A stretch of DNA of 41,152 bases from a virus. Under the pieces are notes generated by a model. The model was given only the letters and a program-made list of their open reading frames with translations, searched no databases and was not told the origin of the DNA. The position numbers were made by a program, and so were the translations under genes. The stretch covers positions 1 through 41,152 of IMG/VR virus record IMGVR_UViG_3300044960_000362; one strand, 5' to 3'. Below are positions 23,579 to 27,864 of the stretch, in pieces; the stretch's first letter is position 1, and the number at the start of each line of letters is the position of its first letter.

Positions 23579-23740
23579 GCGCCAGCCAGGAGGATCGAGC
23601 GCACCCCCTCGTCAGAGCGAGCCATTGTAGCCGCGAGCACCGTGGGAGAAGAGCGAGCCAATCCTCGTGAGAGCACCAAATTGTGCGAGCGAGCCAGAAA
23701 CCGAGAGAGCACCCCAGACCGTGAGCGCCCCACACACCGA
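23579..23740 (+). repeat. Alternating-block repeat array 1 (four 36-bp units plus end block)
   Basis: Units start at 23579, 23615, 23651 and 23687, each GAGCGAGCC-N9-GAGAGCACC-N9. The array ends with GAGCGCCCC-N9 (23723-23740). The first unit is degenerate (GCGCCAGCC), and unit 2 has GCGAGCACC. All nine 9-nt spacers differ. It fills the space between the stop at 23576 and the ribosome site before 23753. The ERA/EST frame is open and in phase with the next gene. Confidence 0.9.
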
Positions 23741-23752
23741 GGAGGAGCACCC

Positions 23753-24604
23753 GTGAGCACCGCACTCGACGACCCCGACACCACATCCGTTGTGATCGAC
23801 CCCACCATCCTGCTGCGCAAGGACCTCAAACGCGCCGCCGACACCCTCGGCCCGCGCGAGGCGCGGTTCCTCGTGGACCTCTACTACCAGATCCAGGACT
23901 ACCGCCTGGCCACCAACCTCCAGATTCTCGCGCTCGGCGGCGCCGGCGAGCCGCACCTGGCCATCGGCTGGGCGCGCGGCCAGATGGCCGACCTGGAGGC
24001 CACCATCCGCGCCGTGCTCGACCGCTACACGATGGTCGAGCCCACGGGCATGGGCGCCTGGTCGCGCGCGATCGTCGGCGTCGGCCCCGTGCTCGCCGCG
24101 GGCCTGCTCGCTCATCTCGACATCACCCGCGCCCCCACCGCGGGGCACTTCTGGCGCTTCGCGGGCCTGGACCCGACCCTGACCTGGGAGCGGGGACAGA
24201 AACGCCCCTGGAACGCCCAGCTGAAGGTGATCTGCTGGAAGCTGGGCCAGTCGTTCATGAAGGTCCAGAATCACCCCAAGGACATCTACGGGCACCTCTA
24301 CGTCGAGCGCAAGGCGTACGAGCAGGCGCGCAACGGCAGCCCCGAGATCGCCGCCCAGGCGGCCCAGATTCTCGCCACGCGCCGCATCGGCAAGGACACC
24401 GAGGCCTTCAAGGCCTACGCGGCGGGCCGCCTGCCGCCCGCGCAGATCGACGCCCGCGCCCGCCGCTGGAGCATCAAATTGTTCCTCGCCCACTACCACG
24501 GCGAGGCGTACAGGCGGCACTACGGCATCGAGCCGCCGCTGCCCTACGCCATCGCCCAGCTCGGCCATGCCCACCTGATCGAGCGGCCGAACCCCACGCG
24601 CTAG
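23753..24604 (+). CDS. Protein with Transposase_20-like (IS110 C-terminal) helix-hairpin-helix domain
   Basis: 283 residues from a GTG with GGAGGAG upstream. The same frame is open back to a GTG at 23573 through array 1. Helical N-terminal part (LYYQIQDYRLATNLQILALG). The centre matches the helix-hairpin-helix region of IS110-type transposases: AIVGVGPVLAAGLLAHLDIT, FWRFAGLDPTLTWERGQKRP, LKVICWKLGQSFMKV. The QSG-type serine region appears as WERG, and no N-terminal DEDD nuclease domain is seen, so transposition is unlikely. The C-terminus is helical and basic. Arrays 1 and 2 flank the gene on both sides; its stop lies inside array 2. Confidence 0.6.
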   Translation: MSTALDDPDTTSVVIDPTILLRKDLKRAADTLGPREARFLVDLYYQIQDYRLATNLQILALGGAGEPHLAIGWARGQMADLEATIRAVLDRYTMVEPTGMGAWSRAIVGVGPVLAAGLLAHLDITRAPTAGHFWRFAGLDPTLTWERGQKRPWNAQLKVICWKLGQSFMKVQNHPKDIYGHLYVERKAYEQARNGSPEIAAQAAQILATRRIGKDTEAFKAYAAGRLPPAQIDARARRWSIKLFLAHYHGEAYRRHYGIEPPLPYAIAQLGHAHLIERPNPTR

Positions 24605-24966
24605 CCAGAATGCGGGAATGCACCAGAGATGCGGAGCGAGCCAACGTGTGTGCGAGCACCACAGTATGGGAGCGAGCCAGAAGGGCCGAGAGCACCAAGC
24701 TACGGGAGCGAGCCCTAGCGAGCGCGCGCACCACATCATGCGAGCGAGCCAGGGTCGGGGAGAGCACCACTATCCGCGAGCGAGCCAGGAACCTGGAGAG
24801 CGCCAAAGAGCGCGAGCGAGCCGAAGCGACGGAGAGCAGCACGATGAGCGAGCGAGCCCTCATAGGCGAGAGCACCATGGTGAGTGAGCGAACCGCAGAG
24901 CGAGAGAGCACCATGTTTGACGCGCGAGCCATCCCAGTGGAGAGCACCCAGATGAGCGAGCGCCCC
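24598..24966 (+). repeat. Alternating-block repeat array 2 (ten 36-bp units plus end block)
   Basis: Ten units in exact 36-bp steps from 24598 to 24957, each GAGCGAGCC-N9-GAGAGCACC-N9, then the end block GAGCGCCCC (24958-24966). The first unit is degenerate (GCGCTAGCC, GAATGCACC), and unit 2 has GCGAGCACC, as in array 1. Twenty spacers, all different; most begin with A. It begins on the stop codon of the upstream gene and runs almost to the ribosome site of the next gene. Confidence 0.92.
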
Positions 24967-24999
24967 GCCCCCGCGATCACGACTGACAGGAGCAGCCTC

Positions 25000-25560
25000 A
25001 TGCCCGCGCCAAGCCCGCCGCTCTATACCCCCCGCCGCGTGCGCTTCGTGCTCGCCCATTGGGAGGAGCTCGAGGCGCTCGCGGCCTCCGCCTCCGCAGC
25101 CGCCCACCTCCGCGTCTACCTCGACCACGAGTGGGCGCTGCTCCAGTCCGACCGCTCCCGCCGCGACTGCCTCTGCCCGCTCGGCGAGCCCACCCCGCCC
25201 GCTCAGGCCGGCCGCCGCTCGGCCTGGGGCGACGGCGCGCACGGCGCCCAGCACACGCTCGCCGACCTGCGCCAGGCGGCCGACTCCCTGCCCATCACCT
25301 GGACCGCAACCCGCGCCATCTACGCCCAGCAGGCCCGCTTGGGCGAATGGCGCTTCCGCCATGGCATCTACCGGCGCGGCGCCCGCGGGCGCCCCCAGGA
25401 CGCCCTCATCGAGCCCGCGACGGGAGCCTGGCAGGTCGCCACGCGCATGATGGCGCTGGCGCTCGGCTGGCGGCGCTTGACAATTGACGCCAACATCCCG
25501 CATCCTGAGGGTGCTCGGCAGCCGCATCCCCAGCGTCAGCCCGCCAGCTCGGCGGGCTGA
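25000..25560 (+). CDS. Hypothetical protein following array 2
   Basis: 186 residues from an ATG at 25000 preceded by AGGAG. The same frame stays open through array 2 to an ATG at 24610, which would add about 130 residues of ERA/EST 12-mers. Core sequence: RRVRFVLAHWEELEALAASA, AAHLRVYLDHEWALLQ, CLCPLGEPTPP, LADLRQAADSLPITWTATRA, IYAQQARLGEWRFR and MALALGWRRLTID. Two helical segments and a possible HTH-like end recall late-gene regulator (phage RinA/ArpU-type) proteins found just before terminase genes, but I cannot assign it. It ends in a hairpin. Confidence 0.55.
   Translation: MPAPSPPLYTPRRVRFVLAHWEELEALAASASAAAHLRVYLDHEWALLQSDRSRRDCLCPLGEPTPPAQAGRRSAWGDGAHGAQHTLADLRQAADSLPITWTATRAIYAQQARLGEWRFRHGIYRRGARGRPQDALIEPATGAWQVATRMMALALGWRRLTIDANIPHPEGARQPHPQRQPASSAG
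25536..25560. terminator. Hairpin at the end of the preceding gene
   Basis: TCAGCCCGCC and GGCGGGCTGA form a perfect 10-bp stem with a 5-nt loop, ending on the stop codon. No T-tract follows. Confidence 0.45.
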
Positions 25561-26047: not shown

Positions 26048-26569
26048 ATGGGCACACGAGGGCCGGCGCCGAAGCCGGCGACTGAGCGGCAGAATCGCAA
26101 CCCGCATCGAGAGATCGGGCTGGTAATCCCGGCGCCTACGCAGAGCATGCCGAAAGCGCCGCGCGGTCTACTGGAGTCGAGCCGGAAGCGCTGGGCGGCC
26201 TATTGGTCGAGCGCGGTGGCGCAGGCGGCTGATCGCGTGGTGGACCTCCATCGGGTAGAGCGCTGGATCCGGGCCGTTGACGAGTACGAGCGCGTGCTGC
26301 CGGTGTTTCGCAAGACGCGGCTCGTGAAGAATGCGCCGGGGAGCGTGGTACTCAACCCGCTCGCCGGCTATCTGAATCAGCTTGAGGCGGTGATCCAGCG
26401 TGCGGAGACGGACCTGGGCCTAACGCCGGTCGCTCGGCTGCGGCTTGGGATCGCCTACGGGCAGGCGCGCCTGACGGCGGAGGAACTGAACCGCGCGCTC
26501 TCAGAGGGAGAGCGCCAGATCGGGGATGCCGGGGGCGAGGCATGGACAGAGGAATGGGAGGCGGTGTGA
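26048..26569 (+). CDS. terS: Terminase small subunit, P27 family
   Basis: 173 residues from an ATG with GGGAG upstream. The P27-family hallmarks are present: the opening GTRGPAPKPATERQNRNPHR, APRGLLESSRKRWAAYWSSA, a helical middle with RWIRAVDEYERVLP, and NPLAGYLNQLEAVIQRAETD, LGLTPVARLRLG near the end. It recognises the phage DNA packaging site and recruits the large terminase. The following methyltransferase gene intervenes before terL, an unusual order. Confidence 0.9.
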   Translation: MGTRGPAPKPATERQNRNPHREIGLVIPAPTQSMPKAPRGLLESSRKRWAAYWSSAVAQAADRVVDLHRVERWIRAVDEYERVLPVFRKTRLVKNAPGSVVLNPLAGYLNQLEAVIQRAETDLGLTPVARLRLGIAYGQARLTAEELNRALSEGERQIGDAGGEAWTEEWEAV

Positions 26570-27864
26570 TCCCCCAAGCGGTCCCGCTGGATCGGCTACA
26601 GCCCGCGCCATGGAATCCGCGCATTCTCAGGGAGAAGCGCTTCCGGGACTTGTGTGCCAGCCTCACGGCCGATCCGGGGCTGCTGGAGCGGCGGCCGATT
26701 CTCGCCAATGCGCAGGGGATTATCTATGCGGGGAATCAGCGGTTCCGCGCAGCGCAGCATCTTGGCTGGACGACCGTCCCGGCGGTGCTGGACGATATCA
26801 CGGACGCCGAGGCCAAGGCGCGATCGGTGCGAGACAACGCGGCGGCGGGCGAATGGAACGAGGACCAGTACGGGGAGCTGCTCCACGAGTTGCGCCAGTC
26901 GGGCGTGAGTCTCGCCAGTCTCGGTGCTGATGCGGCCGAAGTCGAGCGCCTGCTCGCTGGCGTAGGCGGCGGCATCGAAGAGGATGTCATCCCCGAGCCG
27001 CCCGCTGAGCCGATCACCCGGCCGGGCGACCTGTGGCTGCTGGGGCCGCACCGGGTGCTATGCGGGGATAGCACGCGGCGCGAGGACGTGGAGCGGGTGA
27101 TGGGCGGGCAGCGGGCGAGGGGGGTTTTTACCAGTCCGCCATTTCTGCAGCAACGTGCCTATGCTGGCAACATGGCATCCGATTGGCATGCTCTCCTCTC
27201 CTGCGTGTTCTCCGCCGGACTGGCCTTTGTGGAGGAGGATGCACAGGTCTTTGTGAATCTTGGTCTAGTGCATCGTGATGGCCGCGTTATCCGCTACTGG
27301 GACTCATTTCTCGATGACGTCGAGTCTGCTGGTTGGCCGCTTTTTGCTTGGTACGTATGGGACAAACTCAATGGCATGCCCGGCGACTGGAACGGAAGAT
27401 TGGCTCCCGCACATGAGTGGATATTCCATTTCGCTCGTGTTGCAGATCGGCCTGAGAAGGTAACTCCGAGCAAGAATTGTGGCCGCCGCGTCGGCAGGAC
27501 TCAGCGAAATCCCGATGGCAGCCTCAAACAATTCACAGGAGCGGGTGATCCGATTCAGCCGTTCAAGATTCCAGACAGCGTGATTCGTCTTTCGCCCCAG
27601 AAGCCTGACGAGGAAGTGAACGATCATCCCGCACCATTTCCCGTTGGATTGCCAGCGGCATTCCTCGAGGCGTGGAATGGGCGAGACTGGTATGATCCCT
27701 TTCTCGGCAGCGGGACGACCCTCATCGCCGCGCACCAGCTGGGCCGCATCTGCTATGGGCTGGAGATCGAGCCGCGCTACTGCGATGTGATCGTCAACCG
27801 CTGGCAGAACCTCACCGGCGAGACGGCGCGGCGGGAGTCGGCAGGCACATATGCCGCGTCCTAG
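26566..27864 (+). CDS. ParB-like domain fused to a DNA methyltransferase
   Basis: 432 residues from the GTG overlapping the terS stop; in-frame ATGs at 26542 and 26554 are alternatives. Residues 1-140 are a ParB/Srx-type domain (LQPAPWNPRILREKRFRDL, IIYAGNQRFRAAQHLGWTTV). Then comes an N4/N6 (beta-class) methylase with motif IV TSPPF (189-193) before motif I DPFLGSGTTLIAA (from D377). It methylates adenine or cytosine amino groups, probably to protect phage DNA from host restriction. Bases about 27120-27690 are clearly more AT-rich than the flanks, so the catalytic core seems swapped in. It overlaps terL by 14 bases. Confidence 0.85.
   Translation: MIPQAVPLDRLQPAPWNPRILREKRFRDLCASLTADPGLLERRPILANAQGIIYAGNQRFRAAQHLGWTTVPAVLDDITDAEAKARSVRDNAAAGEWNEDQYGELLHELRQSGVSLASLGADAAEVERLLAGVGGGIEEDVIPEPPAEPITRPGDLWLLGPHRVLCGDSTRREDVERVMGGQRARGVFTSPPFLQQRAYAGNMASDWHALLSCVFSAGLAFVEEDAQVFVNLGLVHRDGRVIRYWDSFLDDVESAGWPLFAWYVWDKLNGMPGDWNGRLAPAHEWIFHFARVADRPEKVTPSKNCGRRVGRTQRNPDGSLKQFTGAGDPIQPFKIPDSVIRLSPQKPDEEVNDHPAPFPVGLPAAFLEAWNGRDWYDPFLGSGTTLIAAHQLGRICYGLEIEPRYCDVIVNRWQNLTGETARRESAGTYAAS

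What the first reader, a model, noticed from the sequence alone, without database searches (positions are those of the whole stretch)
24598..24966. Regular two-block array with unique 9-nt spacers (array 2)
Ten units in perfect 36-bp register alternate GAGCGAGCC and GAGAGCACC, each followed by a 9-nt spacer. The blocks are well kept (GAGCGAGCC exact in seven units), whereas all 20 spacers differ. No indel breaks the register over 360 bp. This is not a simple tandem repeat, nor a CRISPR array (repeats and spacers far too short), nor ordinary iterons (spacers of exactly equal length, two alternating repeat types). Candidate roles are a protein-binding array for packaging or partition, a transcribed regulatory RNA, or a coding repeat. 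I know of no named system with this layout.
Basis: seen in the sequence. Interest (0 to 1): 0.9.

Follow-up and report, generated by a model that had tools for sequence, protein, structure and literature searches.

The report
TIGR guide-RNA arrays with TasA gene
The regular repeat array in this phage is a TIGR guide-RNA array, a recently described RNA-guided DNA-targeting system, and it sits next to the gene for its partner protein TasA; the system is known, but a clue from a relative suggests such phages may use it against competing prophages.

Summary
In detail: ten units in exact 36-nt register at 24598-24966, plus a second array of four units at 23584-23732. The two arrays flank a 283-aa gene (23753-24604). 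The interpretation "no named system" is wrong. This is a TIGR array (Faure 2025, PMC12045711). Its protein is a Tas protein by profile (PDB TasR 3.5e-25, TasH 2.6e-17) and by fold (best Foldseek hits TasH/TasR). It has no nuclease domain, so it is TasA. Repeats are really 10 nt (edge GAGCGAGCCA, loop GAGAGCACCA) and spacers 8 nt, nearly the same as the experimentally tested array of Salicola phage CGphi29. 93 of 96 loci searched, the window included, hold such arrays. Edge repeats show compensatory pairing, spacers turn over while tas stays 97-98% identical, and no reading frame is kept. Spacers matched nothing in their own or related TIGR phages beyond chance. One exact match was found: a guide of the Acidobacteriaceae KBS 96 TIGR prophage hits the early operon of another integrated phage element in the same chromosome (suggestive, p about 0.01-0.06). 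Verdict: new member of a known kind, with a testable lead on what TasA targets.

The parts
23584..23732 (+). TIGR array 1: 4 units, from truncated edge AGCCA (23584-23588) to truncated terminal edge GAGCGCCCCA (23723-23732)
23753..24604 (+). tasA gene (GTG start, 283 aa, stop TAG 24602-24604): Tas protein with Nop/IS110 C-terminal-type domain and no nuclease domain
   Evidence: Pfam Transposase_20 5.6e-5; phrog_4285 4.3e-43 over residues 18-280; PDB profile TasR 3.5e-25, TasH 2.6e-17; AlphaFold pLDDT 87.5; Foldseek TasH/TasR top hits
24598..24967 (+). TIGR array 2: 10 units; first truncated edge AGCCA 24603-24607 overlaps the tasA stop codon; terminal truncated edge GAGCGCCCCG 24958-24967
24634..24643 (+). 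example of a full edge repeat GAGCGAGCCA (internal pairs 3-8 and 4-7)
24688..24697 (+). example of a loop repeat GAGAGCACCA
24675..24710 (+). example of one predicted 36-nt tigRNA (AGCCA + spacer A GAAGGGCC + loop + spacer B AGCTACGG + GAGCG)
   Evidence: boundaries inferred from processing of known TIGR arrays laid on this sequence

Best explanation
A phage-borne TIGR-TasA system. The two arrays are transcribed on the + strand together with tasA and cut in the middle of each edge repeat into 14 RNAs of 36 nt (AGCCA-spacerA8-GAGAGCACCA-spacerB8-GAGCG). A TasA dimer binds one such RNA through the box D (GA) and box C (CA) motifs of the edge and loop repeats. Spacer A pairs with one strand and spacer B with the other strand of an adjoining 16-bp DNA site (5'-A-rc(B)-3', gap 0-2), so that TasA opens and sharply bends the DNA. 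TasA has no nuclease, so the likely effect is to block transcription or replication of competing mobile elements. Shown here: arrays, protein family and fold, pairing pattern in edge repeats, spacer turnover. Inferred from PMC12045711: transcription, processing, dual-strand pairing. Inferred, with weak direct evidence (about 0.5 likely): the competing-element role.
For: Tas homology: PDB profile hits TasR 9mty 3.5e-25 and TasH 21kl 2.6e-17, ahead of IS621 at 4e-6; Foldseek top 11 hits all TasH/TasR. Array layout: 93 of 96 loci (window included) hold dual-repeat units, 1624 in all. The tested Salicola CGphi29 array has edge AAGCGAGCCA, loop AAGACAACCA, 36-nt units and 8-nt spacers. Truncated edges at both ends, as in the published description. 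Covariation: edge pair 3-8 formed in 14 of 15 distinct consensus repeats (G-C, A-T, T-A, G-T), pair 4-7 in 14 of 15, while shifted pairs mostly fail; last base of edge and loop change together (A/A 75, G/G 14, A/G 3). The array starts on the tas stop codon in the window and 24 relatives, and one unit further on in 16 more. Spacers turn over while tas is 97-98% identical. Role: guide 2 of the KBS 96 TIGR prophage exactly matches, gap 0, an early gene of another integrated phage element in the same chromosome.
Against: No RNA or protein data from this phage. No intrinsic terminator (+ strand) or sigma-70 promoter found near the arrays. Guides gave no more matches than control geometries in 2.1 Mb of TIGR phage DNA, and no convincing own-genome target was found, so the target class is unproven. 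The KBS 96 match is one hit from six guides (chance about 0.02-0.06).
Confidence: 0.92

Rival explanations
1. The array is coding: the frame reads ERA-xxx-EST-xxx and continues into a 316-aa ORF.
For: The frame is open through array 2 in the window.
Against: Among 83 arrays of relatives and the window, the homologous frame is open in only 5 and any forward frame in 12; arrays with edge GATTGAAACA (L038, L041) have more stops than units in that frame. The downstream gene has its own ATG at 25000 with a ribosome-site-like sequence before it.
Confidence: 0.02
2. The array is a DNA-binding array (partition or packaging site), helped by the nearby ParB-like/methyltransferase and terminase genes.
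For: It lies just upstream of HNH, terminase small subunit, ParB-like methyltransferase and terminase large subunit genes.
Against: Two repeat types in fixed order, truncated ends, RNA-type covariation inside the edge repeat and constant pairing with a Tas gene fit an RNA guide array. G-T outnumbers A-C at the paired edge positions (160 v 90; T-G 149 v C-A 67), as expected if the + strand is an RNA.
Confidence: 0.03
3. The TasA gene is an IS110-type transposase and the arrays are bridge-RNA-like parts of a transposon.
For: Pfam Transposase_20 and PHROG label 'transposase'.
Against: At 283 aa the Transposase_20 match starts only at residue 107 and no DEDD catalytic domain was found; Tas chains score far better than IS621; tandem guide arrays are not a bridge-RNA feature.
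Confidence: 0.02
4. Same TIGR-TasA system, but its job is other than competition (regulating host or phage genes, or guiding integration).
For: The published work leaves the function of TasA open; no competitor targets were found for most guides here.
Against: No convincing cis targets in own genomes; spacers turn over fast, as expected for a changing set of opponents; one exact match to a co-resident phage element.
Confidence: 0.4

Closest known systems
TIGR-TasH of Salicola phage CGphi29 (SpTIGR; HQ634153)
   Same: 36-nt units, 8-nt spacers, edge AAGCGAGCCA against GAGCGAGCCA here, loop AAGACAACCA against GAGAGCACCA; array downstream of the tas gene
   Different: TasH carries an N-terminal HNH nuclease; the window protein has none; 26% identity over 60% of the protein
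TIGR-TasA (solo Nop domain, e.g. Flavonifractor plautii FpTIGR)
   Same: nuclease-free Tas with dual-repeat array upstream and/or downstream (PMC12045711)
   Different: FpTIGR has 18 nt of variable sequence per guide; here 16 nt. Sequence not compared directly
TIGR-TasR (PDB 9mty)
   Same: best profile match, 3.5e-25; Foldseek match 1.5e-6
   Different: RuvC nuclease at the N terminus; UG/CCA boxes and 9-nt spacers
IS110 transposases with bridge RNA (IS621, ISCro4)
   Same: shared Nop-like RNA-binding domain
   Different: much weaker profile match, 4e-6; no catalytic domain and a tandem guide array here

Membership tests
TIGR-Tas | Tas protein with Nop domain next to the array | tested here: met
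   TasR/TasH best by profile and fold
TIGR-Tas | two alternating 8-12-nt repeats with short equal spacers | tested here: met
   10-nt repeats, 8-nt spacers
TIGR-Tas | array starts with 5'-truncated and ends with 3'-truncated edge repeat | tested here: met
   AGCCA at start, GAGCG at end in both arrays
TIGR-Tas | predicted rho-independent terminator after the array (described as typical, not essential) | tested here: not met
   none found on the + strand; the paper says 'typically'
TIGR-Tas | box C and D covary between edge and loop; extra pair in the edge repeat supported by covariation | tested here: met
TIGR-Tas | transcription and processing to 36-nt tigRNAs | not testable with these tools
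   needs small-RNA sequencing
TIGR-Tas | dual-strand RNA-guided DNA binding | not testable with these tools
   the guide match is only indirect
TasA subtype | no nuclease domain fused to the Nop domain | tested here: met
   283 aa, Pfam finds only Transposase_20; the N-terminus is helices 17-31, 34-63, 69-95
TasA with TasParB operon | parB-like gene in operon with tasA | tested here: inconclusive
   a ParB-like/DNA methyltransferase fusion lies at 26542-27864, three genes further downstream, not adjacent
CRISPR | 25-36-nt repeats with similar-sized spacers and cas genes | tested here: not met
   repeats 10 nt, spacers 8 nt; the gene between the arrays is tas, and no cas gene appeared among the neighbouring proteins scanned
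IS110 transposon | DEDD catalytic domain plus C-terminal domain | tested here: not met
   only the C-terminal type domain is found

The most novel reading that the evidence does not exclude
Nuclease-free TIGR-TasA systems carried by temperate phages use their guides to silence other phage elements integrated in the same host. In Acidobacteriaceae KBS 96, TIGR guide 2 (TAAAAGCA/TTCGATTC) exactly matches, with zero gap, the start of an excisionase-like gene in the early operon of a second integrated phage element. Guide 5 matches the replication-like gene of the same element with two edge mismatches, at a site not conserved in the TIGR prophage's own homologous gene.
Probability: 0.3. Interest if true: 0.85.

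Novelty: new member of a known kind. Interest (0 to 1): 0.45.

Why it matters
The published work says natural TIGR targets are hard to find and that the function of nuclease-free TasA is unclear (PMC12045711). Here is a large related set (364 viral relatives; 1624 guide units in the loci read) with fast spacer turnover, and one concrete guide-target pair inside a single sequenced isolate that can be tested directly.

Tried and rejected
Searches used a wrong start (23755) for tasA and are void for that gene; redone. Coding repeat: rejected. Guide targets in own and related TIGR phages: no excess over control geometries or mispaired spacers. Two widely shared guides scanned in viral contigs: one gave 69 contigs, 29 of them one abundant phage family with a 1-bp gap at the start of a conserved gene, but other guides of the same arrays do not match that family beyond controls, so it is most likely chance plus abundance. 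A nearly duplicated Propionivibrio guide gave no match in 200 genomes of its family. Limited mobile-element DNA from other TIGR host genomes gave no exact match; for L093 no 8/8 guides could be extracted, so it was not tested. Relatives of the targeted KBS 96 replication-like protein were not found in viral contigs, nor convincingly in 200 family genomes. Rfam: no match.

Full report
OBSERVATION. The sequence at 24598-24966 is as described. Ten 36-nt units stand in exact register; the conservation sum for ten units is 266 against at most 209 elsewhere in the window. A second array of four units lies at 23584-23732. Between them is one gene, 23753-24604, GTG start, 283 aa. The window is an IMG/VR virus record of 41152 bases with about 72% G+C.

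PROTEIN. Pfam gives Transposase_20 (IS110 C-terminal type) at residues 107-142. PHROG 4285, labelled 'transposase', matches residues 18-280 at 4e-43. A profile of 27 relatives finds TasR 9mty (3.5e-25) and TasH 21kl (2.6e-17) in the PDB, then IS621 (4e-6). The AlphaFold model (pLDDT 87.5) is closest to TasH and TasR (Foldseek 4.7e-7 to 3e-4, the first eleven hits), then to IS110 recombinases. No nuclease domain is present, so by the published scheme (PMC12045711) it is a TasA.

ARRAYS. [quoted passage not shown] The window fits: array 2 starts AGCCA inside the tasA stop codon (TAG CCA) and ends GAGCG; array 1 likewise starts AGCCA and ends GAGCG. Comparison with relatives shows 10-nt repeats and 8-nt spacers. 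The experimentally studied Salicola phage CGphi29 array reads AAGCGAGCCA / AAGACAACCA with 8-nt spacers and 36-nt period, almost the window's own repeats. The 14 guides (A/B, 8 nt) are listed.

RELATIVES. 364 viral stretches (80 kept) and 11 bacterial genome loci encode relatives, besides four from a first scan. 93 of 96 loci, the window included, hold dual-repeat units, 1624 in all. At locus-consensus level the edge repeat pairs at positions 3-8 in 14 of 15 distinct sequences (G-C, A-T, T-A, G-T) and 4-7 in 14 of 15 (C-G, T-A, T-G); shifted controls such as 4-8 (1 of 15) and 3-7 (4 of 15) fail. The last repeat base changes together in edge and loop. In the window and 24 relatives the first truncated edge is fused to the tas stop codon (TAGCCA, TAAGCCA, TGAGCCA), and in 16 more the first parsed edge is exactly one unit later, probably because the script missed the first unit. 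This suggests one transcript for tas and array (inference). No frame is kept open across arrays.

SPACERS. Close relatives share some units, in part in other order, while others differ: L020 and L021 have 97.6% identical tas but share 6 of their 24 and 46 units; L021 and L026, 98.1%, share 7 of 46 and 12. Some arrays with tas only 82-85% identical share units with identical spacers but diverged repeats (L008/L015: spacers 1%, repeats 10%); the match filter on spacers biases this comparison, so it is only a hint of selection on guides. Spacers are poorer in G+C than their phages (window 58% by the 8-nt parse against 72%; mean 48% against 55%).

TARGETS. From the published 8-nt 3' overhangs and the C-5 rule I derived the target as 5'-A-rc(B)-3', gap 0-2. 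In 2.1 Mb of TIGR phage DNA 1159 guides gave no excess over three control geometries and mispaired spacers. For the isolate KBS 96 (L087), six guides were searched in its 6.7-Mb genome. Guide 2 gave one exact zero-gap match, TAAAAGCAGAATCGAA at 6329962-6329977; the other five gave none, and reversed control patterns none. Chance for six guides and three gaps is about 0.06 (0.02 for gap 0), assuming equal base use. The site lies in the 86-aa HTH_17 gene of an element with integrase, HTH_3 regulator, a second HTH_17 gene, a replication-like gene and a prohead protease. Guide 5 matches that element's replication-like gene with two mismatches. That gene's product has a 59% identical relative (over its C-terminal half) in the TIGR prophage itself, where the site is not conserved. 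In 620 kb of KBS 96 DNA, mostly around integrases, 1 of 6 own guides but 1 of 1153 foreign guides match exactly (Fisher p 0.010); this DNA was chosen after the hit, so the figure flatters somewhat. I rate the competing-element role as about even, unproven.

LIMITS. No expression data; the host of the window phage is unknown; the KBS 96 result is a single case.

Noticed in passing
L004:8984-10663 and L005:8276-10372: The tas genes of these relatives carry large in-frame insertions at two different sites. The L005 insert is an intein by Pfam (Intein_splicing and LAGLIDADG_3); the L004 insert has intein-like ends but no Pfam hit. The main text of the TIGR paper does not mention inteins.
   Followed up: partly
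window 23753-24604: PHROG family 4285, annotated 'transposase / integration and excision', covers this Tas protein over nearly its full length; the family label is probably wrong for TIGR loci.
   Followed up: partly
window 26542-27864: A ParB-like domain fused to a DNA methyltransferase sits between terminase small and large subunit genes, three genes downstream of tasA; the paper reports ParB-like genes in operons with some tasA genes.
   Followed up: no
L096:1619-2674: This tas gene has about 60 aa more than the window protein between the positions matching window residues 145 and 150.
   Followed up: no
L003:1716-1812: In this relative a short array upstream of tas lies on the opposite strand to the gene; it was the only locus where the parser found minus-strand units.
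   Followed up: no
L038 and L041: Two phages with otherwise identical arrays differ by one extra unit next to a near-identical one, a possible recent unit duplication.
   Followed up: no
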